Part shown: one piece after another, positions 1,969 to 63,359 of the stretch | Numbering within the stretch: the stretch's first letter is position 1 | Layout: each line of letters begins with the position of its first letter | IMG/VR virus record: IMGVR_UViG_3300043777_000056 | Location: 1 to 64,000 of that record | Direction: 5' to 3' (one strand) | Origin: a virus | Length of the DNA stretch: 64,000 bases | Translations under genes and position numbers: made by a program | Notes under the pieces: model-generated | What the model was told of the DNA's origin: nothing | Databases searched by the model: none | What the model saw: the letters and a program-made list of their open reading frames with translations, nothing else

Positions 1969-1989
1969 AAGGGCCCACAAGGGGCCCTT
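1969..1989 (-). terminator. Terminator-like hairpin, leftward
   Basis: AAGGGCCC and GGGCCCTT form an 8-bp stem around a 5-base loop. On the minus strand it is followed by TTCTTTTTG. It lies 23 bases after the stop of the 2013-2234 gene and would end the operon that starts near 4123. Confidence 0.7.
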
Positions 1990-2429: not shown

Positions 2430-3017
2430 TTAACCCTCCTCGGGATTGACTTCTGAGACCATCTCGCCGCCACACGCGCACGTCGGCGTGCCAACAGCGA
2501 GCCATTTGAGTGTCGTACGGACTACATAGCCACACTCAGAGCACATGACCTTGATCAGCCGAGATCCAGGTTTCGGCTTGTCAGAGATCAGCGATAGCGG
2601 GCTATGCGGGTACGCCGGCATACCCTTGAGCCATTCACCGATACGACCAAGCAAGGACTCCCCTGCCAGGGTAGCGGTCATCTTGCCCTCCAGGCCGGCA
2701 GCCTTCGCGATACGCTTAAACTCTCCCTTGTGACCATGCTCATTGTTGAGAGCGGCATGGATCAGCTCATGTACCAGCGTAGCAACGGCACCCTGGGGCC
2801 CATCGGCATCCAGGATAGGCGATATGAATACCTCACGGTGCGCGTCGCCAGAAGCCTCCTGCTTCCAGCATTGGCCTATAGCATGCTTGCCGCCGCGTGA
2901 GCCCTTGGGGAACCCAAGTGACACGCGCCACTTGTCGGGTGTTTGCGCCCCGACGTTGTTTAGATGCGGCCACAAATTGCGGCGCGCAATCTCATTCAGC
3001 CACTCTTCCCTATTCAC
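2430..3017 (-). CDS. SprT-like zinc metallopeptidase
   Basis: The 195-residue protein carries HELIH at residues 83-87, the HExxH zinc-binding and catalytic motif, with further histidines in HGHKGEF near residues 94-96. A C-terminal zinc ribbon (CSEC near residue 160, CACG near 180) completes the SprT/SPRTN layout. SprT-family proteases cut proteins bound or crosslinked to DNA; the phage substrate is unknown. The start is a GTG at 3015-3017. Its Shine-Dalgarno sequence GAGGG is also the 3' strand of stem II of the hammerhead ribozyme at 3024-3075, so translation may depend on ribozyme folding or cleavage. Confidence 0.85.
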   Translation of the reverse strand: MNREEWLNEIARRNLWPHLNNVGAQTPDKWRVSLGFPKGSRGGKHAIGQCWKQEASGDAHREVFISPILDADGPQGAVATLVHELIHAALNNEHGHKGEFKRIAKAAGLEGKMTATLAGESLLGRIGEWLKGMPAYPHSPLSLISDKPKPGSRLIKVMCSECGYVVRTTLKWLAVGTPTCACGGEMVSEVNPEEG

Positions 3018-3023
3018 GTTTCG

Positions 3024-3075
3024 ACCCTCATCAGTACCGGCGATACCGGCAGACCGCCCGAAGGCGGTTTCGGGT
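3024..3075 (-). ncRNA. Type II hammerhead ribozyme, copy 1
   Basis: Read on the minus strand, 5' to 3': stem II strand ACCC; core GAAA; stem III CCGCC with a UUCG loop and GGCGG; cleavage triplet GUC; stem I UGCCGG, loop UAUCG, CCGGUA; core CUGAUGA; stem II strand GGGU. Every invariant core nucleotide of a hammerhead is present and all three stems pair (one G-U in stem I). Stem II is the open stem, hence type II. Predicted cleavage follows the C complementary to position 3052. The element starts on the last base of the upstream stop codon and its last stem holds the Shine-Dalgarno of the SprT-like gene. Confidence 0.93.
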
Positions 3076-3425
3076 TAATTGAATCGACCGCTCCAGGTGA
3101 TACCCGCGTAGGACTTTGGATCAAATACGTTGCCGCGTATGAAGTTGAAGGCCGGGGTTTTCCATTCAGCAGACTTCAGGATGTCGCCGCGCTTCCAGTC
3201 CTTGCCGCGCGCGCTGTAGTCGCGCAACACGACAAAGCTATGGCTAGAGCGTTGGCTTCCAAAGTAGTAGACTATGCGTACCACGTTCTTACCGGAGGCA
3301 TCCTGCATCCAGGCGTCGGCAGCAGTGGGCGCCGACTTGTAGCCACATTCGGCATGCCAAGCAACGTAGTTCGCGCGCAGATGCGCGCAATAGGCCGCAA
3401 TAGCGGCTAGCAAATCTTGTTCCAT
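3075..3425 (-). CDS. Hypothetical protein, 116 aa, gene bracketed by two hammerhead ribozymes
   Basis: Begins MEQDLLAAIAAYCAHL and ends TWSGRFN. I do not recognise the family. The protein has a helical N-terminus and a basic, aromatic C-terminal half (VVLRDYSARGKDWKRGDILK, FNFIRG), with no membrane segment. It is the only gene lying between the ribozymes at 3434-3486 and 3024-3075. Self-cleavage at both would release it on an RNA of about 411 nucleotides. Its Shine-Dalgarno GAGG overlaps the last stem of the upstream ribozyme, 10 bases before the ATG at 3423-3425. Confidence 0.7.
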   Translation of the reverse strand: MEQDLLAAIAAYCAHLRANYVAWHAECGYKSAPTAADAWMQDASGKNVVRIVYYFGSQRSSHSFVVLRDYSARGKDWKRGDILKSAEWKTPAFNFIRGNVFDPKSYAGITWSGRFN

Positions 3426-3433
3426 GGTAATCT

Positions 3434-3486
3434 GGCCTCGTCAGTGCTGGCACATACCAGCAGACGCCCCGAAGGGCGTTTCGGCC
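3434..3486 (-). ncRNA. Type II hammerhead ribozyme, copy 2
   Basis: Minus strand, 5' to 3': stem II GGCC; core GAAA; stem III CGCCC, loop UUCG, GGGCG; triplet GUC; stem I UGCUGG, loop UAUGUG, CCAGCA; core CUGACGA; stem II GGCC. All core positions match and all stems are fully paired. Compared with copy 1, stems I, II and III differ by paired (compensatory) changes while the core is constant, which is strong evidence for selection on structure. Predicted cleavage follows the C complementary to 3463. It begins directly after the TGA of the 3487-3897 gene and ends 9 bases before the next ATG. Confidence 0.94.
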
Positions 3487-3897
3487 TCAGCTAAGGTCGG
3501 CTTTGATGCGCTCCAGGTCGGCAAGGCCTAACAGGACGCGGGCGGACGGCGAATCCTCGGCGTAGCGATTGCGCCGAAGCTCAGTCTGAAGCTCCAGGTG
3601 CCGTATCGCGAGAGCAACGGAGACCCCGTACTCAACTTCGTCGGCCAGATCAACCGAGACCGCCGGCACAAACCCTTCACGGGTATGGACCTTGACAGCT
3701 GCCGCAGTCTCAAGCTCGACCGCATGTAGCTTCAGGTTCAAGTGCGATAGCAGGTAAGCCCGTACTGGCAATCCTGTGTGGACCTTACCCCGCTCATTGA
3801 ACGCAGCGGCCTTGATTTGCTCTGCAGTCTGTCCCAATGGCGCAGCTGACGCTGCATCGTGTGACAAAGGGCGTACATCATCGACGTAATTAGACAT
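3487..3897 (-). CDS. Hypothetical protein, 136 aa
   Basis: Begins MSNYVDDVRPLSHDA. This start is chosen because GGAGAGAG precedes it and it overlaps the upstream stop by a few bases; the frame extends 14 codons further upstream without a ribosome site. The sequence is soluble and helical (KLHAVELETAAAVKVH, LADEVEYGVSVALAIRHLEL) with no known motif. Its stop codon abuts ribozyme copy 2, so its mRNA would end in the UUCG-capped stem III after cleavage. Confidence 0.65.
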   Translation of the reverse strand: MSNYVDDVRPLSHDAASAAPLGQTAEQIKAAAFNERGKVHTGLPVRAYLLSHLNLKLHAVELETAAAVKVHTREGFVPAVSVDLADEVEYGVSVALAIRHLELQTELRRNRYAEDSPSARVLLGLADLERIKADLS

Positions 3898-4090
3898 GTG
3901 CTCTCTCCAGTTGTGCATAGACCAGTGGTGCAATCTCATGGATCTGCACAGTTACCGCCTCAGCGCGCAGACTGTACAGGTCATGGCTGTGACGACGTGA
4001 GGCGATCCTCATCGCGTCGTATTGGTCGCCAGCGTACAGCAGAATGCTGTGCCTGCTGCCGTCCAGGAACTCCATGAAAACCTTAAACAT
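3890..4090 (-). CDS. Hypothetical protein, 66 aa, first gene of the leftward operon
   Basis: Starts MFKVFMEFLDGSRHS after a GGAGAT ribosome site and ends 8 bases inside the next gene, suggesting coupled translation. No family is recognised. It is the promoter-proximal gene, 33 bases downstream of the TATAGT box at 4123-4128. Confidence 0.6.
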   Translation of the reverse strand: MFKVFMEFLDGSRHSILLYAGDQYDAMRIASRRHSHDLYSLRAEAVTVQIHEIAPLVYAQLERAHV

Positions 4091-21158: not shown

Positions 21159-24100
21159 ATGGACGTCAACCTGCCTGACGGCACCACCGTTAAGGGTGTG
21201 CCTGATGACATGACTCGGGATCAGTTTGTGCAGAAGGCGAAAGCTAATGGCATGAACATCCCTGATGAATGGCTTGGCGCTTCACAGGTACACGCTCAAC
21301 CCACGCAATCTCCGGCCGCTCCTCCGGCCCAAACGTCCAATGAACCAAGCATGGACGAAATCAACCGCCGACACCTTACCAGACAGGGCGATCAGTGGAT
21401 AGATCCGACCGCGCCGCGCGATAGAACCAAGGATCCTAACAGCGAATTTGAGAACGTCGTAACCCGCGCCGGTAGCACTCTAGTTGGCATGGCGAAGGAT
21501 CTGCCAAACGCTGCTGCCGCGTTGACCGATCCTGAGGCTTTGCTTCGCGGGTCCAATAAGCTCGCCGGCATAATGGGTATGGGAACAGATCCGTTTGGCG
21601 CAACTGCCCGCGCCATGAAGGCCAAGGGTATCGACTATGACCCGGTTCCGGAATGGGCCAAGCATGGCAAGGGTCTCAGCAATGCGATCATGAACAGCTC
21701 CCATGCCTATCAGGATTTCATGGGTGGAGTACAGGACAGGGTAGAGTCGGCGCTTACCCCTTCATTTCGCGATGCTGCCAATAAGCCAATGATGGAGGGC
21801 CTGAGAGACCCTGAATGGTATCTGAATGGTCTCGGAACGGCTGCAGCCTATGCGCTCCCGAGTATAGGTCCAATAGCAACGGCATCCAGACTTGGATATG
21901 CCACTCGCATGGCATCGCTCGCCGGGCGTACAGACATGGAGATGGCACAAAAGGTTGCCTCATCCATTGCCGCCGGCCAGAAAGCCGGGGCGGCTGTTGG
22001 TGGTGTGACCAATGCCGCAATCATGGGTGGTCAGACTGGGCAAGAAGTCCGTGACGCGCTGGGCAAGCTAGACGAAGCTACCCTGATGAACTACCCCGAG
22101 TACCGCAAGGCCCGCGAGCAAGGCAAAAGCGATGTCGAGGCTCGCCAGGAATTCATCTCCAATCGCGCTAATGAGGCCACCCTGCTGTCCGGACTCGCTG
22201 CCGAGCTTCCCACCCAGGCTCTAAACAAGTTCATCGCTCATGCCGCCGTAGGCCATGCCATAGCGCGTACGACTGCCGGCGCGGCCCTCAAGGGAACCAT
22301 CGAGGGCGGGGTAGCTGGTGCCCTGGGGATGACCGGAATGGGCACCGTGGAGCGCGCCGAAGAGGACAAGAACAAGGACTTCTATGGTGCGCTGAAGCAA
22401 GCGACCAAGGACGATTCCCTATCCGGAGCCCTATTCGGGGCTGTGATAGGTGGTGGTTTGGCCGGCGGAGCGCATGGTCGCATACCGACCACGCAGGCAG
22501 AAGATCTAGCCAGGGGGGCTGAAAAGGCCAAAACCGCATCCGATGTCCAGAAGGCAATGCAGTCTAAAGCCGACGCAGAGGCCGCTGAAGCGGCCGAGAA
22601 GCGCCAGAAGGCTGGGACAGCGTCTGACCAGGACAGCGGCGCAGCGGGCCGCGCAGAGGCCAAGGCAGAGCGTATAAGCGCCGAGCAGGCACAGGAGAAC
22701 CACGAGACGCTAGTCCGTGCTCAGCAAGACTTCATAGCGGCCCATGAGCGAGTGAAAGCAATTGAGGCCCATGTTGCCGATCCTTCGGTGCCGGTCAACT
22801 ACAATGAGCTTGAACGTGCCCGTAACGAGCGGGCAAAGGCGTATGACGATTTCGCTGAGGCTGCCGATTCCGCTGGCATCCTGACAGCAAGGAAACAAAG
22901 CGGGCAGGTACAGAACAATGTCGGGCAAGCAAGCGAAAGATCTAACGAAGGAACCGTTCGACGGGCCGATCAGCGCGGAGACGGGAGCGGACGTGAGCGG
23001 AGTGTCGAACTCGAAGGGCCCAAGCTCGATGGGTCGAGCGCAGACGCGGCGTCATCCGGGAATGAGCGGGTCGGGCGGGAAGTCGAACCGCTGGCAGGGT
23101 CAGGTCGGGGCGCGACCGGAGTCGAACCCGGAGACGGACGGATATCTGGACGTCGGAATCAAGGATCGGAACATCCGCAGCCGCTAGAAGAGGTAGGCCC
23201 TCTTCCAGGCACTGAGGAACAGAAGCGCGGGCGCGTCCTCGACAATGTCGAGGAAACGAAGCTTGGCGGCCCCATGCCGCCACTTGAAGAAACCAAAAAG
23301 GCTCAAGAGACGCATGCCGGCGAGGCAAATGAGCCATCCGCCGCTTCTGAGCGTGACAAGGTCCAGAAGGCACTAGCCGAGCGTCAAGTCTCGAACAAGC
23401 AGTACGCCTCCAACTACGCCGATATCCCTGAAAGCAACCGGGCGCTAACCCCTGATCAGAAGCGGGTCGAAGACCGCATGAAGGCCATAGTGGCTGACGT
23501 GCCGGCAGCGGAGCAGGCATACTCACAGGTCGCCGGCACCGAGGGCGGCCGGATCATCAATACCGATCTAGCGCGCAAACTCAGCCCTGATTACGACAAG
23601 GACAATCAGTCTCGCGCGCTGCACTCAAATAGCGTTCAGGAACCATCTTCGTGGCTTGCTGACAAGCTGTATTTCCGTCGCCTAGCTGAACCACCCGGCG
23701 AGTCAAAGACGGTCCTAGCCACTGCTGGCGGTTCTGATTCGGGAAAGTCAATTTCACTGTCCAGTAAAGATGCCAAAAAGGCAGATATCGTTTACGACGG
23801 TAACATGAACAATCTACCGAAGACCCGGCGCCGCATAAAGGCGGCCCTGGATAGCGGTCGAGATTTTCATATCCAATTCACCTTCCGCGATCCTATCGCG
23901 GCCTGGAAAGAAGGTGTGTTGCCGCGTGCAATGAAATTTGGGCGTACAGTGCCGGCGGAAGCGCATGCTGACACGCATAATGGCAGCTTCAAGACTGTGA
24001 TGGCGCTTGCCAAGCAGTACGCAAATGATCCTCGCGTCAAGATCAGTGTAGTGGACGTTGACGACGCCAGCGTGAAGACGCTGCAGGATGTGGCCAAGAA

Positions 24101-27100
24101 ACGGTACCACATAACACCGGATGAACTCCGAAAGATAGCGATTGAGGAATACAAGAATGGGCGAATCACAGATACGGTCCTCAGAGGGGTCGCCGGCCCA
24201 GGTGCTGAAAGACTGGCTCGTAGCGGAAAAGATAATGGACGAGTATCCGGAAAGCCAGTGGGAGAAGCAGGTAAAAGAGCAGGTTCCGCTGGCGAAGCAG
24301 GAAAGGGCAATGGAAGAGATTCGTCAGGAGAAGGCGGAGATCGAGCAAAGTCACAAGAAGAAGCTCGACTGGGAGAAGGTGTACCCGGACAGGTACAAGT
24401 AGAACCACTCAAGGGGATGCCGACATCAGTCGATGTCCCCGGCAAAGGCAAGATAGCCTTTGGACCAGAGACACGCGCACAGGCTGCTGCAGCTGACTAT
24501 GCTAAGCGCGCCGGCATCAAGTACGACCCTCCGCGCGACTACAAGAAAGTCAACGTCGATACCGCCAAGCAGATCGCTAAAGCATACGACGAGATGAAGA
24601 ATGATCCGACTGATCCAAAGGTCAAGGCATCATACGATGCCCTTATCAAGGAGACACTGGATCAGTTCCAGTCAATCAAGGCCACCGGTCTCAAGATTGA
24701 ATTCATCGAACCTGGGCAGAAGGATCCATACGCTGCGAGCCCGCGTCTTGCGATTATGGATGCCCGCGATAACAATCATCTATGGGTGTATCCGACAGAG
24801 TCAGGCTTTGGCGGAAACGTAGTCAACATAGGTCTTAAAGTCGGAGAAAACGACAAAATCACTCGTGGCGAGGCTGAGGCTGCACTTCGTGCAAAAGGGG
24901 TGGACATAGTCTCCTCTAACGTTCACGAGTCTAACACTGAACCTACGCTGGTTGCGCGTCTCTCGCGACCACTCACTACCAGCGAGGCTCATGATGTCAG
25001 TACCAAGCTTAAACAGGAAAGTATCGCTCAACTTGTAGGCCAAAAGGGCGAGTTGCATGGCCCTAATGCCGAGCAATGGAGGCCATTCAATCCTGACTAC
25101 TTCCTGACCGAGAGCGGAGATGTGCTGTCCAAGGTTCAGCAGAATCCGATGCTTCGCGAGACGGATGAACTGATCGGGGGGCGCCGGCTGCTCGCAAATG
25201 ACGTTTTCCGGATCGTGCATGATTACTTCGGCCACATCAAGGAAGGAATTGGGTTCCGAGCCGATGGCGAAGAGAATGCGTGGCGACAACATGCTGCTAT
25301 GTACTCCGATCTAGCGCGCGGCGCGATGACCACTGAAACGCGCGGACAGAACTCTTGGTTGAACTATGGTCCTCACGGCGAAAATAATCGCACCGCGAAG
25401 GCATCAGAGACCATCTATGCCGAACAGAAAGCCGGCCTCCTCCCTGACAGATTCACTGTAGATAGCCCAGAGCCTATCAAGACTGGGGAGAGCGTCGCTG
25501 AGGTATTGCCAGTGTTTCGCGTGGGGTCTGAAGGGACCGAGCGTGAACGCCAGCTCATCTGGGGTGGCAATCCAAAAGATATCCCCTACGCGAATGAAAA
25601 AGACCGTTCTGTCATTGCCGGTGGCGGTATCGATGCCAAAACCAGCGAGGCCATCAAGAGTCACATTCGACAAGAATTTGGGTTTGATGTCCAGATCGTT
25701 AACCATCCTGAAGATGTCCCTTACATTGATCGTTGGGCCGCAGAGAATCTACCAATATCTGCAGTATTCACCGACAACGTAGACGGTGGAACCGTCCACT
25801 TAATCGCCGGCAACCTGGGCAGCTTCGAGCACGGAGTTACCGCAGCTACCCATGAACTAGTTGGTCACTACGGTACCCGCGCCGTTCTTGGCGGCCGAGG
25901 CAGTGACAACTATAACATCATGATGGATGCCATCACAAGGGCATTCCCTGGTCGCGTTCGCGAGATGGCCATCAAGAACGGCATCAGCATGTCTCACCCT
26001 GACAAGTCTATACGAGAGATGCGCCGCCGAAGCGCCGCCGAAGAACTGGTTGCATACGCTGCCGAGAAGTCAATCGATGGCAAGCGCTTGCGTCCCGGCA
26101 TGTTCCAGCAGATCGTCGATATGTTCCGGAGCTTTCTGCGCAACATCGGCGTTCTGAAGACCGCCAACGAATCAGATATCGCGAGTTTGATTGATCGCAG
26201 TGCCGATTACGTACGCCGGGGCGGTGCGGAAAGAATGCGGACCCGCGACCAGATCTCTCTTGATATAAGCGGCCAGCCGCGCGAATACGCCTTCCAGACG
26301 AACGACAAGACCAGTTACCGCGTCAACCTTCCATCTGTAGAGCACTCATTCGATGAGACCGGGGAACACCGGCTATCGACTTCTGCCGGCGAGATGCTGG
26401 CGCAGGAGAGCGGGAAATACCTGAATGTGAAGCGCTCAGATGTCGAGAGCGCGGCACGCGGGCAAGGCCACGGCGTGGCGATGCTTGAGAAAGCGGCTAG
26501 CGTTGCCTTTGAGCGCGGACTTAAGCTTGGATCGGACATAAGCGTATCACCGTCTGCGGCTCGCCTTTACGATGCTCTTGAGAGACGTGGCTACGAGGTT
26601 ACCCGCAATCCCGCAGACATCAGCGAGACTACCGGAAACTACGTGAGCCGCGATCATCGTGTACCGGTGTTCGAGGTAGCGCCACAGCAGAGCTACAAGG
26701 TAGGCAGGGAGAAGACGGCGCGCGATATCCTGGGCGAGGTAGCAAGTCATCTTACCAAGGAAGAAAAGGCCAAGCTCACGCGAGTATCGGCTGAAAAGGT
26801 ACTTGATGTATTCAAAAACCTGCCAGATGCCAAGGAGTTTGCTTCCGCTGCGCTTGCTGGCAAAGCTAAGCGCGGCTGGTATCGAGAGAGCGCCAAAGCC
26901 ATAGCCAACGTATTCGGTCCAGATGGACCGCGCTTTACCGCCTTACTATCAGCCATGAGTCCGCGGGTTAGCGTCGAGATGAACCTGCACAATGCCTTGC
27001 ATACCTTCATCAACTGGGACAAGGCCGGACGTCCTCAGAAGCGCGGCGAGATCGTCAAGATAATGGGCGACTCAGTGTTGGGTGACCAGGGGAAGAACAG

Positions 27101-30100
27101 CGTTCTAGGCGCTTGGATACCAAACGCAGTTCGCGCACTTACTCACGCCGAGCCAGAGAACCTTAACCTTAGCGGGCCAAAGGTCAATTCCTTCATGCGT
27201 AACCTACAGGGACACGTTCACGAAGTGACTCTGGATGCCTGGATGGCAAACTTCGCCAAGATAGATCAACGACTATTCGCCGGTAGTTTGAAAGCTAACG
27301 GCGTGGATCCTGGCAAGCGCCCAGGGTACCTTGGTTACTCCGCCCGCGTGCGCGAAGCCGCCAAGATGGTATCCAGGATAACTGGTGAGAAGTGGACGCC
27401 GGCCGAGATCCAGGAGACAATATGGTCATGGGCCAAGACAGCATACGAAACTGCAGACTCATACGGCGGCTTAGGAAGCGTGCCGGAGCTTGTGCGCAAC
27501 AAGGAAATTACCGATGAACTCATCCGAAGCACTCCAGACTTTAAGACCCTCTTCCACTCCGAAGCCTACGAGCCAGTCCTCCGTGGGGCGGGATACGGTG
27601 ACCGCCTTGACGAACTACGCGCAGCGAACGAAGCAGACGAGCAACGAGCTGCAAGCAAAGCGGAGCCGCCTGTTAGCCGCGCTCTCCAAAAGCACCTTGA
27701 AGCAGCCGCAGAGCGGCTAGAGTCTCTTCGTCAGGAAGTCAACGAGTCGCGCATCTCGACTCGACGCGCGCGCCAAACAGAGCGCCGACGCAATCCAAAT
27801 CAGCAGCAAATGTTCAGCGTGTCAAAACCTGACTCGCCGGAACAGGCCGCGTTTCTTGCAAAGATCAATCCCGAGTCTCACGACACTAGACCACTAAAGG
27901 AAAAGATCGGAGAATTCCTCCATGGCGTCCAGCAAGGGGTATTCAACGAGTTTCATGGCATAGAAAGTTCGTTTAAACAATACGGCGGTGAAGGCCCCAA
28001 CCTAGGATTCATGAAGGCCGAGCTGACCCGTAACGCCGGTCAACTACTGTCATCCGCCATCAAAGATGGTGTCCCTATTTGGCGCCAGGGTGAGGTTGGT
28101 CTAGATACCTCTGCCGGGGGCTACCAGGATATTCTAGCGCCACTTGGCAGTAAGGTCGAGGACTGGTACAACGCTCGCGTTGCGCGACGTGCCGCACGTC
28201 TATACGAAGAAGGTCGAGAGCACAACTTCACTCCCGAAGAGATTGCGGCCGGCAATCGTTTGTGGGATCAGCATCCTGAGTTTGAAAAGGCCTTCCAGAA
28301 GCGCGCTGAATTCTCGCGTCGCATACTAGACTTCGCGGAGCAGGCCGGCATTATCGATGGCGAGGGTAGAAAAACCTGGGAGAACGCCGACCACGTTCCA
28401 TTCTATCGATTGATGGGGGATACGGGAGACATCACTGGCGCGACCGCAGGCCGCAGTATAGGTCGCCAGAAAGAACAGATCAAGCGCCTCAAGGGCGGTG
28501 CCGCGCCAATTGCCGATCCTATGACCAGCGAACTCCAGAACTGGGGCTCGCTCATGAAAGCGTCATTGCACAACATGGCTGTGACCCGCGTTATAGATGA
28601 TATGCGGCATCTACAGATGGAAGATGGGCGCCCAGTGATAGAGGCTGGCCGTGCCTCTACCGACATCAAGATCTCGAAAGAAGAATACAAGCAGCGCCTA
28701 CTTGATACCGGCGTTGATCCAAAGAGCCTGGACCACAATACTTTCGAGCATCTATACAGCCTGCAGCACGGACAACCCGAAGAACCTAACACCATATGGC
28801 AGATGGTGAACGGAAAGAAGGTCTACTGGAAAGTGAATGACGAGATGCTTTTCCAGTCTCTGGCGAATCTGAACAATGGCGGCCAGTCTGAATTCATGAA
28901 GTTCTGGTCCAAGTGGGTAGGCGCTCCCGCGCGCCTACTGCGCAAGACCATTGTCAACACTCCGGTATTCGCGGCCAAGATTGCAGTGCGCCATACCCAA
29001 TACCTATGGGTAACCGGCCGGTATGGCTCGAAGTCTATCTCGCCTGAATTCGTGCCTCTACTGAATTCTGTTCAGGGCTTCTGGTCAATCATGCGCAATA
29101 GCGAGGAAGCCAAACAGTGGAAGGCTGCTGGAGGCCTCTTCAGTGACGCTATGAGCTACGGAGAGCCGGTCAACGCGGCGCGTAGGCTCAAGATGCGTCT
29201 AGCCGCCAAGAGCGTCCCTGGGACCGTCCTAAGCAGCCTGACAGCGGTTGCTGACTTCTACCATCGCTTTCTGAACGCCGCTGAGGGCATGAACCGTATC
29301 GCGATTGCCAACTCCTCGCTTAAAGCCGGAGCATCCAGAACGCAGGCGGCCCACGCGGCACGCAAGGTTCTGGACTACACCCAGAAGGGAAACCACTGGG
29401 CAATCAAGATGGCGATCACTTCCATTCCATTCACAACTGGACACTTAGCCGGTCTCGACGCCCTCAAGAAGTCCATGATGACGAATCCAACCGGGTTCCT
29501 ATTCCGTGGCGGACTGCTCGCCGCTGGAGCCGTGGCTTACGCCGCGATGAACCAGAAGAACCCGGACTATTTAGCCCTGACTGATGACCAGAAGACGAAC
29601 TACTTCCACTTCTTCAATGTCTTCAAGCAGGGCGACCATTGGCAGATCCCGAAGTCCTTCGAGGACGGCGCGATCTTCGTGACCATCCCAGAGGCCATTA
29701 CCAACTACGCCCTGTCGAGCGATAATGACCGCCTGCGTCAGGCCGCAAATCTGGCTGGTCACTCTCTCAAACAAGCGTTCGAGTACGATTACATGCCGAC
29801 CGAGATCAGGCCGATCTACGATCTGGCAACCAACACCCAGCACTATAGCGGGGCGCCAGTACTGAGCCAACAGGATCTTGACGTGGCCCCTCAGCAGCAG
29901 GATGCGCCATACGTCAGTCCTACATTGCGCATGTTCGCGCAGAACATGCCTGATGCAGCTCCGGACTGGCTAAAGTCTCCCAAACAGGTTCAGTTTTTGG
30001 CGAGCAGTTATATCGGCACCATGGGTCAATACGTCACCGCTATAACAGATGCGATGATTCGTCAGGCCCAGGGTGTGACCGCGCCCGCGCGCCCGAACGC

Positions 30101-30581
30101 TGTCGCCGGCCTACCGTCTGTCAACCAGATCTACAAGGTTGGGCCGTCATTGCGCACCAAGTACACGGACAGCATGTACACGGTGGCCAAAAACATTGCA
30201 CAGATTTCCGCGACCGAGAAGAAGATGGAAGCCGGCGATGAGGGTAAGAAGGTCATGGACTACAATCGCGAACATGCGTTCGAGCTTGGCGTGAAGTCGA
30301 GCTATGACGCCGCTACCAAGCAAGTGGCCCAGATCCGTCACTACATCCTCCAGGTCCAGCAAGATAAGAACTTGAATCCACAGGATAAAGAGGATCGCAT
30401 CGAGAAGGCGCAAGAGTCGATTAACAAGATCGCTGAACAGCTCTACAAGCTACGCCCAGGCGGTCCCCTCGACAAGACATCTCACAAATTGATAGGCGCT
30501 ACCCTACCTCAGAAGGTAGGCGTGCTACAGTCTGCCGGACTCCCTGCGACGGCTTCTTTGATACGAGACATGGCGGCATAG
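21159..30581 (+). CDS. Giant polyvalent ejected protein, 3140 aa
   Basis: One uninterrupted frame. Visible parts in order: short N-terminal module (MDVNLPDGTTVKGVPDD); hydrophobic segments near residues 225-300 and 430; low-complexity linker about 450-750; zeta-toxin-like P-loop kinase unit with GGSDSGKS near 855-865; linker 1010-1090; conserved unit with NNHLWVYPTESGFGG near 1200; unit with HDYFGHIKEGIGFR near 1350 and GQNSWLNYGPHGENN near 1410; metalloprotease-like HELVGH at 1565-1570 (HExxxH); GNAT-like RGQGHGVAMLEKA near 1766; further conserved unit about 1850-2130; long helical C-terminus with VFAAKIAVRHTQYLW near 2600, like domains of large polyvalent proteins. Such proteins are packaged in virions and injected with DNA to disarm host defences. 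Functions of single units are inferred. Confidence 0.85.
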   Translation: MDVNLPDGTTVKGVPDDMTRDQFVQKAKANGMNIPDEWLGASQVHAQPTQSPAAPPAQTSNEPSMDEINRRHLTRQGDQWIDPTAPRDRTKDPNSEFENVVTRAGSTLVGMAKDLPNAAAALTDPEALLRGSNKLAGIMGMGTDPFGATARAMKAKGIDYDPVPEWAKHGKGLSNAIMNSSHAYQDFMGGVQDRVESALTPSFRDAANKPMMEGLRDPEWYLNGLGTAAAYALPSIGPIATASRLGYATRMASLAGRTDMEMAQKVASSIAAGQKAGAAVGGVTNAAIMGGQTGQEVRDALGKLDEATLMNYPEYRKAREQGKSDVEARQEFISNRANEATLLSGLAAELPTQALNKFIAHAAVGHAIARTTAGAALKGTIEGGVAGALGMTGMGTVERAEEDKNKDFYGALKQATKDDSLSGALFGAVIGGGLAGGAHGRIPTTQAEDLARGAEKAKTASDVQKAMQSKADAEAAEAAEKRQKAGTASDQDSGAAGRAEAKAERISAEQAQENHETLVRAQQDFIAAHERVKAIEAHVADPSVPVNYNELERARNERAKAYDDFAEAADSAGILTARKQSGQVQNNVGQASERSNEGTVRRADQRGDGSGRERSVELEGPKLDGSSADAASSGNERVGREVEPLAGSGRGATGVEPGDGRISGRRNQGSEHPQPLEEVGPLPGTEEQKRGRVLDNVEETKLGGPMPPLEETKKAQETHAGEANEPSAASERDKVQKALAERQVSNKQYASNYADIPESNRALTPDQKRVEDRMKAIVADVPAAEQAYSQVAGTEGGRIINTDLARKLSPDYDKDNQSRALHSNSVQEPSSWLADKLYFRRLAEPPGESKTVLATAGGSDSGKSISLSSKDAKKADIVYDGNMNNLPKTRRRIKAALDSGRDFHIQFTFRDPIAAWKEGVLPRAMKFGRTVPAEAHADTHNGSFKTVMALAKQYANDPRVKISVVDVDDASVKTLQDVAKKRYHITPDELRKIAIEEYKNGRITDTVLRGVAGPGAERLARSGKDNGRVSGKPVGEAGKRAGSAGEAGKGNGRDSSGEGGDRAKSQEEARLGEGVPGQVQVEPLKGMPTSVDVPGKGKIAFGPETRAQAAAADYAKRAGIKYDPPRDYKKVNVDTAKQIAKAYDEMKNDPTDPKVKASYDALIKETLDQFQSIKATGLKIEFIEPGQKDPYAASPRLAIMDARDNNHLWVYPTESGFGGNVVNIGLKVGENDKITRGEAEAALRAKGVDIVSSNVHESNTEPTLVARLSRPLTTSEAHDVSTKLKQESIAQLVGQKGELHGPNAEQWRPFNPDYFLTESGDVLSKVQQNPMLRETDELIGGRRLLANDVFRIVHDYFGHIKEGIGFRADGEENAWRQHAAMYSDLARGAMTTETRGQNSWLNYGPHGENNRTAKASETIYAEQKAGLLPDRFTVDSPEPIKTGESVAEVLPVFRVGSEGTERERQLIWGGNPKDIPYANEKDRSVIAGGGIDAKTSEAIKSHIRQEFGFDVQIVNHPEDVPYIDRWAAENLPISAVFTDNVDGGTVHLIAGNLGSFEHGVTAATHELVGHYGTRAVLGGRGSDNYNIMMDAITRAFPGRVREMAIKNGISMSHPDKSIREMRRRSAAEELVAYAAEKSIDGKRLRPGMFQQIVDMFRSFLRNIGVLKTANESDIASLIDRSADYVRRGGAERMRTRDQISLDISGQPREYAFQTNDKTSYRVNLPSVEHSFDETGEHRLSTSAGEMLAQESGKYLNVKRSDVESAARGQGHGVAMLEKAASVAFERGLKLGSDISVSPSAARLYDALERRGYEVTRNPADISETTGNYVSRDHRVPVFEVAPQQSYKVGREKTARDILGEVASHLTKEEKAKLTRVSAEKVLDVFKNLPDAKEFASAALAGKAKRGWYRESAKAIANVFGPDGPRFTALLSAMSPRVSVEMNLHNALHTFINWDKAGRPQKRGEIVKIMGDSVLGDQGKNSVLGAWIPNAVRALTHAEPENLNLSGPKVNSFMRNLQGHVHEVTLDAWMANFAKIDQRLFAGSLKANGVDPGKRPGYLGYSARVREAAKMVSRITGEKWTPAEIQETIWSWAKTAYETADSYGGLGSVPELVRNKEITDELIRSTPDFKTLFHSEAYEPVLRGAGYGDRLDELRAANEADEQRAASKAEPPVSRALQKHLEAAAERLESLRQEVNESRISTRRARQTERRRNPNQQQMFSVSKPDSPEQAAFLAKINPESHDTRPLKEKIGEFLHGVQQGVFNEFHGIESSFKQYGGEGPNLGFMKAELTRNAGQLLSSAIKDGVPIWRQGEVGLDTSAGGYQDILAPLGSKVEDWYNARVARRAARLYEEGREHNFTPEEIAAGNRLWDQHPEFEKAFQKRAEFSRRILDFAEQAGIIDGEGRKTWENADHVPFYRLMGDTGDITGATAGRSIGRQKEQIKRLKGGAAPIADPMTSELQNWGSLMKASLHNMAVTRVIDDMRHLQMEDGRPVIEAGRASTDIKISKEEYKQRLLDTGVDPKSLDHNTFEHLYSLQHGQPEEPNTIWQMVNGKKVYWKVNDEMLFQSLANLNNGGQSEFMKFWSKWVGAPARLLRKTIVNTPVFAAKIAVRHTQYLWVTGRYGSKSISPEFVPLLNSVQGFWSIMRNSEEAKQWKAAGGLFSDAMSYGEPVNAARRLKMRLAAKSVPGTVLSSLTAVADFYHRFLNAAEGMNRIAIANSSLKAGASRTQAAHAARKVLDYTQKGNHWAIKMAITSIPFTTGHLAGLDALKKSMMTNPTGFLFRGGLLAAGAVAYAAMNQKNPDYLALTDDQKTNYFHFFNVFKQGDHWQIPKSFEDGAIFVTIPEAITNYALSSDNDRLRQAANLAGHSLKQAFEYDYMPTEIRPIYDLATNTQHYSGAPVLSQQDLDVAPQQQDAPYVSPTLRMFAQNMPDAAPDWLKSPKQVQFLASSYIGTMGQYVTAITDAMIRQAQGVTAPARPNAVAGLPSVNQIYKVGPSLRTKYTDSMYTVAKNIAQISATEKKMEAGDEGKKVMDYNREHAFELGVKSSYDAATKQVAQIRHYILQVQQDKNLNPQDKEDRIEKAQESINKIAEQLYKLRPGGPLDKTSHKLIGATLPQKVGVLQSAGLPATASLIRDMAA
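24157..24402 (+). CDS. Possible overprinted gene inside the giant gene, 81 aa
   Basis: In the +1 frame relative to the host gene, ATG 24157 follows GAGGAA by seven bases. The product begins MGESQIRSSEGSPAQVL and then forms a charged helix rich in Glu, Lys and Gln (EKIMDEYPESQWEKQV, MEEIRQEKAEIEQSHKK), ending DWEKVYPDRYK. The main frame here is a Gly/Lys/Glu-rich linker that would tolerate overprinting. It lies just downstream of the zeta-toxin-like unit, so an antitoxin or regulator role is conceivable but unproven. Confidence 0.4.
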   Translation: MGESQIRSSEGSPAQVLKDWLVAEKIMDEYPESQWEKQVKEQVPLAKQERAMEEIRQEKAEIEQSHKKKLDWEKVYPDRYK

Positions 30582-57200: not shown

Positions 57201-58316
57201 ATGGCAAAGCGAAAACAAGAAGCGCAGTATGAAGTGGTCGATGACGATTCGGCCGATCTTGATAGCGACATGGAAGACGGGGACGGTCTCGAAGCAGACG
57301 TAGACCCGGAACGCGCACAAGCTCATTCGAGCAAAAAGTCGGACAAGGAACTGTTCGACGATCTCCCAAATGGAATCAAATTCAAAGATGAGCCAGCCGA
57401 CGAGTCCGATGATGAGGACGACGAGGATGAGGACGAAGACTTTGAGCGTGACGATGAGGATGAAGACGAGGACGAAGACGAGGAAGATGAGCCCGTCCAG
57501 CGTCGCGGCGAGTCCAAGGATAAGTTTCAGCGCCGCCTGATGCGCGAGCGCCGCCTGCGCAATGAGGCTGAAGAAGACGCCCGAGCCAGCAATGAGAACT
57601 ACCGCCGCCTCGAAGGCGAGCTGTCAGAGATCAAGTCCCTGCTGGTACAGAACAATACTTCAGCCGAGCTGCAGGTAAAGATCGATGGTCTGAAGCAGAA
57701 AGAGGCCCAGCTACGCAAGGAGCTGAAGGAAGCCATCGAGGCCGGCGAGACCGACAAGCAGTTCGATATCAACGAGAAGCTCTCGGATGTCAAGGCCGAT
57801 ATCCGTAACACTGAAGCTTCCAAGGAAGCTGCTCTCAAGAACACGGAAGCTCTACAGAAGGCCGAGAAGGCTAAGCGAGAGGCGTTACCAGAGAATCGAC
57901 ATCTGCAGCGCTGGATGCGTCAGCATGGCACGCTGTATCGAAAGGATCCTGTTTTCAAGGCAGCCGCAGAAGCCGCCGACAAGGAGCTTGCTCGCACTGG
58001 TTCCGTTCCAAACTCAGAGGAACATTTCGAGAAGCTGAACCGCATTCTTGCGCGGCGCTTCCCCGAGGAGTTTCCCAACGTCAAGATCAAGAAGAAAGAG
58101 CTGAATAGGCGCCGGCCGCCAGTGGGCGGTGGTGACGAGGATTCTGCGCCGACATCCAAGACGCGCCGGAAGTATACTGGTGACATCGAGGTCAAAGGAA
58201 AGACGGCTCGCTTGAGCGCGCGGCATCTGAAGATCATGAAGGATTTCGGGATGGACCCGGATGATCCGAAGGACGTGCAGAACTTCATTCGTGACAATCT
58301 GCCACGCAAGCGATAG
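57201..58316 (+). CDS. Scaffold-like head assembly protein, 371 aa
   Basis: Start MAKRKQEAQYEVVDDDS at 57201 after GGGAG. Residues 75-120 are an extreme acidic run of Asp and Glu. A long coiled coil follows (about 120-240: EDARASNENYRRLEGELSEI, QKEAQLRKELKEAIEAGETD). The basic C-terminus (KIKKKELNRRRPP) resembles the capsid-binding end of scaffolding proteins. It precedes capsid genes. Not identified by a family motif. Confidence 0.65.
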   Translation: MAKRKQEAQYEVVDDDSADLDSDMEDGDGLEADVDPERAQAHSSKKSDKELFDDLPNGIKFKDEPADESDDEDDEDEDEDFERDDEDEDEDEDEEDEPVQRRGESKDKFQRRLMRERRLRNEAEEDARASNENYRRLEGELSEIKSLLVQNNTSAELQVKIDGLKQKEAQLRKELKEAIEAGETDKQFDINEKLSDVKADIRNTEASKEAALKNTEALQKAEKAKREALPENRHLQRWMRQHGTLYRKDPVFKAAAEAADKELARTGSVPNSEEHFEKLNRILARRFPEEFPNVKIKKKELNRRRPPVGGGDEDSAPTSKTRRKYTGDIEVKGKTARLSARHLKIMKDFGMDPDDPKDVQNFIRDNLPRKR

Positions 58317-63093: not shown

Positions 63094-63280
63094 GATGTTG
63101 GACTGGCAGGTCTTTAAGAGGAAGGTGGGGTAGGACCGCGTGCCGTTTACCATGCGACCGAAGCCGGCGGGACGTACCGGTTCATCTGAACAGTGGGTGA
63201 TGGTAAGCGGCCCCGAATACTCAGCTTCCCTCAAGCGCAAGCAAGGGAGTGCAGGTTCGAGCCCTGTCACACGTTACCGA
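63094..63280 (+). other. Gene-free stretch with a 12-bp stem and a tRNA-like T arm
   Basis: GCCGTTTACCAT (63142-63153) pairs with ATGGTAAGCGGC (63200-63211) over 12 bp (one T-G). Inside is GTTC-ATCT-GAAC. Further right, GCAGGTTCGAGCCCTGT (63251-63267) is nearly identical to the T arm of the tRNA at 63281-63359, but a full cloverleaf cannot be built around it. It may be a decayed tRNA or an unrelated structured RNA. Confidence 0.45.
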
Positions 63281-63359
63281 CTGAGTAAGCGCCATGAGGC
63301 AGGCGACCCGGCCTGGAACCGGGAATATCGTGCAGGTTCGAACCCTGCTACTCAGACCA
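63281..63359 (+). tRNA. tRNA-Pro-like (anticodon TGG), CCA encoded
   Basis: Cloverleaf by eye: acceptor CTGAGTA/TACTCAG; D stem CGCC/GGCG with a GG in the loop; anticodon stem CCCGG/CCGGG with loop CCTGGAA; variable loop 8; T stem GCAGG/CCTGC with TTCGAAC; discriminator A and CCA. C1-G72 and A73 fit bacterial tRNA-Pro. Odd point: the base before the anticodon is C instead of the near-universal T33. Confidence 0.82.

What the first reader, a model, noticed from the sequence alone, without database searches (positions are those of the whole stretch)
3024..3486. Two complete type II hammerhead ribozymes with compensatory base changes in a phage operon
Both minus-strand elements have all invariant core bases (GAAA, CUGANGA), a GUC cleavage triplet and three helices, with stem II open. 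Between copies the core is identical but stems vary in pairs: stem III CCGCC/GGCGG against CGCCC/GGGCG, stem I UGCCGG/CCGGUA against UGCUGG/CCAGCA, stem II ACCC/GGGU against GGCC/GGCC. Covariation within one genome strongly supports function. Hammerheads are known in phages, but a tandem pair punctuating one mRNA is unusual.
Basis: partly seen in the sequence, partly recalled or inferred. Interest (0 to 1): 0.95.

Follow-up and report, generated by a model that had tools for sequence, protein, structure and literature searches.

The report
Two self-cutting RNAs flanking phage gene
A bacterial virus carries two genuine copies of a known self-cutting RNA (type II hammerhead ribozyme), one on each side of a small gene, which should cut its multi-gene messenger into single-gene pieces; the kind of element is already known, but here the ribozyme-gene-ribozyme block also appears to have been swapped between viruses as one unit.

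Summary
In detail: two complete type II hammerhead ribozymes lie on the minus strand at 3486-3434 and 3075-3024, with cleavage sites after 3463 and 3052. Rfam RF02276 scores are 38.3 bits (copy B, above the 37-bit gathering score) and 35.0 (copy A, just below). All 16 pairs form in both copies and 5 change on both sides. A close relative keeps both ribozymes unchanged.

Cleavage between cistrons is the best explanation, but was not tested here. A tandem pair is not unusual: Perreault et al. 2011 described clustered hammerheads flanking prophage genes, and 137 of 476 clusters in my sample hold two or more, up to ten.

New here: (1) in the relative, ribozyme-gene-ribozyme is 99% identical with no synonymous difference, while its neighbours are 73-75% identical; the block ends at the outer ribozyme edges, and an HNH-type gene sits right after the second ribozyme. 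(2) Each core/stem II GAGG is also the best Shine-Dalgarno candidate for the next gene, in about 5% of cases surveyed. (3) Among 714 type II hammerheads, the upstream stop codon is usually flush with stem II. Verdict: new member of a known kind, with a testable cassette hypothesis.

The parts
3434..3486 (-). Hammerhead ribozyme copy A, type II (stem II 3486-3483 with 3437-3434; stem III 3478-3474 with 3469-3465 closed by UUCG; stem I 3462-3457 with 3450-3445; core CUGACGA 3444-3438); predicted cleavage between 3463 and 3462
   Evidence: RF02276 35.0 bits, E 2e-3, 6e-7 in own genome; cleavage coordinate; identical in relative L021
3024..3075 (-). Hammerhead ribozyme copy B, type II (stem II 3075-3072 with 3027-3024; core CUGAUGA 3034-3028); predicted cleavage between 3052 and 3051
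   Evidence: RF02276 38.3 bits, above gathering score; cleavage coordinate; identical in relative L021
3075..3425 (-). 116-aa gene (cas116) enclosed by the two ribozymes; unknown function (weak phrog_5014, DUF7717). Its stop codon TAA overlaps the first base of ribozyme B by one nucleotide. Predicted excised RNA is 3462-3052, 411 nt
   Evidence: 115 of 115 third codon positions identical to L021, 0 synonymous and 4 nonsynonymous differences
3487..3939 (-). Upstream gene, 150 aa, unknown; its TGA stop is flush with ribozyme A
   Evidence: 61% aa identity to L021 homologue
2430..3017 (-). Downstream gene, 195 aa, SprT-like metalloprotease family; GTG start 10 nt after the core of ribozyme B
   Evidence: phrog_6361 E 9e-41; SprT-like 24.2 bits, just under Pfam cut-off
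3436..3439 (-). GAGG in core/stem II of ribozyme A: candidate Shine-Dalgarno sequence for cas116 (start 3425)
   Evidence: read; offset; SD assignment is inference
3026..3029 (-). GAGG in core/stem II of ribozyme B: candidate Shine-Dalgarno sequence for the SprT-like gene (start 3017), and for the HNH-type gene in L021
   Evidence: inference
1969..1989 (-). Terminator-like hairpin with T-tract, possible end of the minus-strand operon (another at 1504-1485)
   Evidence: count not above shuffles; inference

Best explanation
The two elements are genuine type II hammerhead ribozymes acting as self-cutting punctuation in a minus-strand phage operon (ORF150 - A - cas116 - B - SprT-like). Each ribozyme fills nearly the whole gap between two genes. 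It folds after transcription, cuts after the GUC triplet (C3463, C3052) and splits the transcript into an upstream mRNA, a 411-nt single-gene cas116 mRNA and a downstream SprT-like mRNA. The upstream piece keeps its stop codon followed by a stable UUCG hairpin ending in a 2',3'-cyclic phosphate. The downstream piece starts with a 5'-OH and the stem I hairpin, followed by GAGG, its probable Shine-Dalgarno sequence. Both ends should resist the usual decay routes (a 3' hairpin; no 5' phosphate for RNase E), and opening of stem II after cutting frees the GAGG. So the genes are uncoupled in stability and translation. Shown: sequence, structure, covariation, conservation in a relative, position between genes. 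Inferred: cleavage, end stability, Shine-Dalgarno use.
For: RF02276 match for both copies; 16 of 16 pairs kept with 5 double changes; both ribozymes identical in relative L021 although flanking genes differ by about 26%. Across 714 distinct type II hammerheads, 654 of 665 usable ones have a co-oriented ORF ending or starting at the element and 526 have both; the upstream stop lies within -6..+2 of stem II in 458 of 618, against 40 of 482 for non-ribozyme CGAAAC sites. Predicted opening energy from GAGG through the start codon falls on cutting from 4.9 to 3.3 (A) and 5.9 to 3.2 kcal/mol (B). Perreault 2011: 14 of 18 consensus hammerheads tested were active in vitro, tandem arrays cut in vitro and one set in E. 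coli, and a halovirus hammerhead variant cleavage site coincides within 3 nt with a mapped mRNA 5' end.
Against: No cleavage assay or RNA-seq was available. Copy A is 2 bits below the Rfam gathering score. Potential loop I-tail pseudoknots are only 3 bp in both copies, whereas 51% of the sample have 4 or more (null 19%). With flanks, nearest-neighbour folding predicts stem II to be mostly unformed, but this holds for the whole sample (median 0.009) and says little. A ribosome-binding site inside the ribozyme is seen in only 26 of 562 cases, so release of the Shine-Dalgarno sequence cannot be the general role.
Confidence: 0.72

Rival explanations
1. Ribozyme-bounded gene cassette: beyond cutting RNA, the ribozymes are the ends of a portable unit (ribozyme + gene, with its own stop-flush 5' edge and translation signal) that is gained, lost and exchanged as one piece, perhaps by homologous recombination between the ~55-bp ribozyme repeats. 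The ribozyme is kept because it makes an inserted gene independent of the operon it lands in.
For: Block 3486-3024 is 99.1% identical to L021 (4 substitutions and a 6-nt indel, 0 synonymous), flanks are 73-75%, and edges fall at the outer ribozyme borders. Four clean gene-for-none differences elsewhere have ribozyme-gene-ribozyme against a single ribozyme: L103/L353, L177/L225, L401/L395, L152/L218. Homology breaks at ribozyme junctions more often than at neighbouring junctions, 0.55 against 0.39, n=68, Wilcoxon p=0.013.
Against: Gene-sized indels overall are not enriched at ribozyme junctions (28 of 125; about 19% expected from their 10% share of junctions). Loci were picked for holding hammerheads, gene calls are rough, and phage mosaics break at gene borders anyway. 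Alignments also run on through any two hammerheads because the core is conserved. The main case rests on one metagenome contig, so a mis-assembly is not excluded.
Confidence: 0.25
2. Circular or ligated RNA: the 411-nt RNA between the cuts carries a 5'-OH and a 2',3'-cyclic phosphate, the substrates of RtcB-type ligases, and could be closed into a circle.
For: End chemistry follows from the hammerhead reaction; retrozymes and viroid-like RNAs do this (PMC7761336).
Against: Perreault 2011 looked for spliced or circular products in similar bacterial arrays and found none. The A and B stem II strands are compatible over only 2 bp.
Confidence: 0.05
3. Slow or dead remnants, or plain hairpins that act as mRNA stabilisers or terminators without cutting.
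For: Copy A is slightly below the Rfam cut-off and the loop I-tail contact is weak in both.
Against: All core bases are intact, base pairs are compensated, both copies are identical in a relative, and there is no T-tract for termination: the scan found none there.
Confidence: 0.1

Closest known systems
Rfam RF02276 Hammerhead_II; type II hammerheads of Perreault et al. 2011 (PMC3088659)
   Same: Same permutation with open stem II, same core, GUC site, between phage genes, clustered copies flanking single genes
   Different: Shorter loop I and only 3 possible pseudoknot pairs; Shine-Dalgarno-like GAGG inside the ribozyme; whole block shared by two diverged phages
Clustered prophage hammerheads of Agrobacterium tumefaciens (ardA), Azorhizobium caulinodans and Clostridium scindens (Perreault 2011)
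   Same: Tandem ribozymes flanking one gene in a polycistronic RNA, proposed to make single-gene mRNAs
   Different: Different genes; those arrays were shown to cut, this pair has not been tested
Retrozymes and viroid-like RNAs with hammerheads (PMC7761336)
   Same: Two hammerheads cut out a unit-length RNA with 5'-OH and cyclic phosphate ends
   Different: Type III or I hammerheads in RNA replicons or retroelements; here a DNA phage operon with a protein-coding unit

Membership tests
Type II hammerhead ribozyme (RF02276) | Invariant core CUGANGA and GAAA with NUH cleavage triplet | tested here: met
Type II hammerhead ribozyme (RF02276) | Three helices, I and III closed by loops, II open | tested here: met
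   all 16 pairs in both copies
Type II hammerhead ribozyme (RF02276) | Covariance-model score at or above gathering (37 bits) | tested here: inconclusive
   B 38.3 passes, A 35.0 does not; A has E 6e-7 in this genome. Many array members in other phages also score 23-37
Type II hammerhead ribozyme (RF02276) | Pseudoknot between loop I and the tail 3' of stem II (majority of members) | tested here: inconclusive
   3 WC pairs possible in each copy, not above chance; 51% of the sample have 4 or more against 19% by shuffling
Type II hammerhead ribozyme (RF02276) | Self-cleavage with magnesium | not testable with these tools
   needs in vitro transcription
Clustered phage hammerheads (Perreault 2011) | Two or more co-oriented hammerheads flanking a gene in a phage operon | tested here: met
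   A and B either side of ORF 3425-3075; virus record of 71,797 bp
Clustered phage hammerheads (Perreault 2011) | Production of gene-length mRNAs in vivo | not testable with these tools
   no transcriptome for this phage

The most novel reading that the evidence does not exclude
Type II hammerheads in phages are the borders of portable gene cassettes: ribozyme plus gene is the unit that moves, stop codon flush at its 5' edge, translation signal in or just after the ribozyme, so that any gene placed in an operon becomes its own self-trimmed mRNA. This would answer why these ribozymes sit between unrelated phage genes.
Probability: 0.22. Interest if true: 0.75.

Novelty: new member of a known kind. 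Interest (0 to 1): 0.45.

Why it matters
What bacterial and phage hammerheads are for has been open since 2011; a 2023 paper from the field still calls the reason for their gene associations unknown (PMC10085705). This pair, and the survey it led to, give concrete and testable clues: upstream stop codons flush with stem II, arrays of up to ten ribozymes between successive genes, and a ribozyme-gene-ribozyme block shared almost unchanged by two otherwise diverged phages. If the cassette idea holds, self-cutting RNA would be a way for phages to add genes without disturbing an operon.

Tried and rejected
(1) A third hammerhead in the genome: none by RF02276; the RF00163 hit at 57391-57428(+) (16.9 bits) is a GAC/GAG repeat in a coding region, chance. 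(2) Hammerheads in distant SprT-bearing relatives L004-L020 and in phages NP1 and VPv62: none. (3) The 116-aa gene or DNA block in named phages: only weak protein matches under 60% identity and no DNA match of note. (4) Enrichment of particular gene families downstream of hammerheads: none striking in 140 genes, in keeping with Perreault's remark that gene identities vary. (5) Enrichment of gene-sized indels at ribozyme junctions: not found. (6) Stem II disruption in context as a sign of regulation: rejected, the energy model does this for most hammerheads. (7) Defence genes nearby: no PADLOC match. (8) Relatives of the 150-aa gene in IMG/VR by pattern search: none.

Full report
What is there. 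The minus strand of the window reads ...ACCTTAGC TGA GGCCGAAACGCCCUUCGGGGCGUC^UGCUGGUAUGUGCCAGCACUGACGAGGCC AGAUUACC AUG... and, 411 nt on...UUCAAUTA A CCCGAAACCGCCUUCGGGCGGUC^UGCCGGUAUCGCCGGUACUGAUGAGGGU CGAAAC GUG.... Both are complete type II hammerheads. Rfam RF02276 gives 38.3 bits for copy B, above the gathering score of 37, and 35.0 for copy A; these are the only two matches in the 71,797-bp virus record, with E-values of 8.6e-8 and 6.3e-7 for that genome, and 14 control genomes give none. Isolated folding gives exactly the hammerhead secondary structure for both. The two copies differ by five pairs changed on both sides and one changed on one side, with no broken pair; sliding the partners gives no double change, but 13 of 500 shuffles reach the same count, as expected for only two sequences.

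Surroundings. The operon reads, on the minus strand, ORF66 (4090-3890), ORF150 (3939-3487), ribozyme A, cas116 (3425-3075), ribozyme B, SprT-like (3017-2430), then short ORFs, with terminator-like hairpins at 1989-1969 and 1504-1485. SprT-like rests on phrog_6361 (9e-41) and a near-threshold Pfam SprT-like match. The phage is a tailed phage with terminase, portal and primase/helicase genes; its UvrD-like helicase at 1-896 is 65-67% identical at the DNA level to that of phages such as NP1 (Queuovirinae, Nipunavirus).

A close relative. IMG/VR contig 3300044908_000004 (L021) has the same gene order, with ORF66 51%, ORF150 61% and SprT 83% identical at the protein level. In contrast the block from the first base of ribozyme A to the last base of ribozyme B is 99.1% identical (4 substitutions, one 6-nt indel; both ribozymes unchanged), while the flanking genes are 73% and 75% identical in DNA. 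In cas116 all 115 aligned third codon positions agree, with 0 synonymous and 4 nonsynonymous differences; in the SprT gene only 92 of 196 third positions agree. Constraint on the protein cannot explain this; recent exchange of the block can, unless one contig is mis-assembled. Directly after ribozyme B, L021 carries an extra 108-aa gene related to HNH endonucleases (phrog_374, 3.8e-41), starting 7 nt after the core, so the same GAGGG can serve as Shine-Dalgarno sequence for two different genes.

A wider sample. Four degenerate patterns in IMG/VR and one in GTDB genomes brought about 500 loci. A strict descriptor, which finds nothing in shuffled DNA, gave 755 hits, 714 of them distinct. Of 665 away from contig ends, 618 have a co-oriented ORF stop nearby and 562 an ORF start within 50 nt downstream. 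The stop codon end lies at +1, 0, -1, -2 or -3 from the first base of stem II in 402 of 618, and within -6..+2 in 458; for CGAAAC sites not in hammerheads the latter figure is 40 of 482. Often the last base of UAG is the first base of stem II. The Shine-Dalgarno motif usually lies beyond stem II (385) and only in 26 of 562 within the core or stem II, as in both copies here. Same-strand clusters of two or more make up 137 of 476, of five or more 23, the largest ten; Rfam alone finds ten in the record of L035. So a pair is ordinary.

Do the ribozymes mark movable units? In favour: the block above; four comparisons where one genome has ribozyme-gene-ribozyme and the other a single ribozyme at that point; and a higher rate of broken homology at ribozyme junctions than at the neighbouring junctions of the same contigs (0.55 against 0.39, 68 junctions, p=0.013). 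Against: gene-sized indels as a whole are not enriched there (28 of 125, about 19% expected), the loci were chosen for having hammerheads, and my gene calls are rough. I treat this as a lead.

Mechanism. The best-supported reading is self-cutting punctuation: each ribozyme sits between a stop codon and the next start, and cutting yields mRNAs that end in a hairpin just after the stop and begin with 5'-OH and a hairpin. That the next gene's GAGG is partly held in stem II suggests that cutting also eases its translation; the computed change is modest (1.6 and 2.7 kcal/mol). Cleavage is inferred from family membership: 14 of 18 consensus hammerheads tested by Perreault et al. cut in vitro, and tandem prophage arrays cut in vitro and in E. 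coli.

Known or new. The class, the permutation, the phage setting and the tandem arrangement are all published (PMC3088659). Associations with Mu-like phage genes and with other ribozymes are also known, their reason is not (PMC10085705). I found no paper in the held library on the stop-codon register, the internal Shine-Dalgarno sequence or ribozyme-bounded exchange, but subscription journals are missing from it.

Noticed in passing
L021 6094-6420: A 108-aa HNH-endonuclease-related gene sits immediately after ribozyme B in the relative and is absent from the window.
   Followed up: yes
window 3425-3075 and L021 5695-6039: cas116 differs between the two phages by 4 nonsynonymous and 0 synonymous codons plus a 2-codon indel, odd for a recently shared gene.
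   Followed up: partly
L035, L060, L178, L256, L405, L044, L202: Arrays of 7 to 10 type II hammerheads between successive small genes of one phage operon.
   Followed up: partly
497 sampled loci: Upstream stop codon is flush with or overlaps by one base the 5' strand of stem II in most type II hammerheads.
   Followed up: partly
window 1504-1485 and 1989-1969, minus strand: Two terminator-like hairpins with T-tracts downstream of the ribozyme operon.
   Followed up: no
window 21159-30581, plus strand: A 3140-codon ORF matching several PHROG families of unknown function in separate stretches.
   Followed up: no
window 63192-63359, plus strand: Adjacent tRNA-Leu(CAA) and tRNA-Pro(UGG) genes.
   Followed up: no
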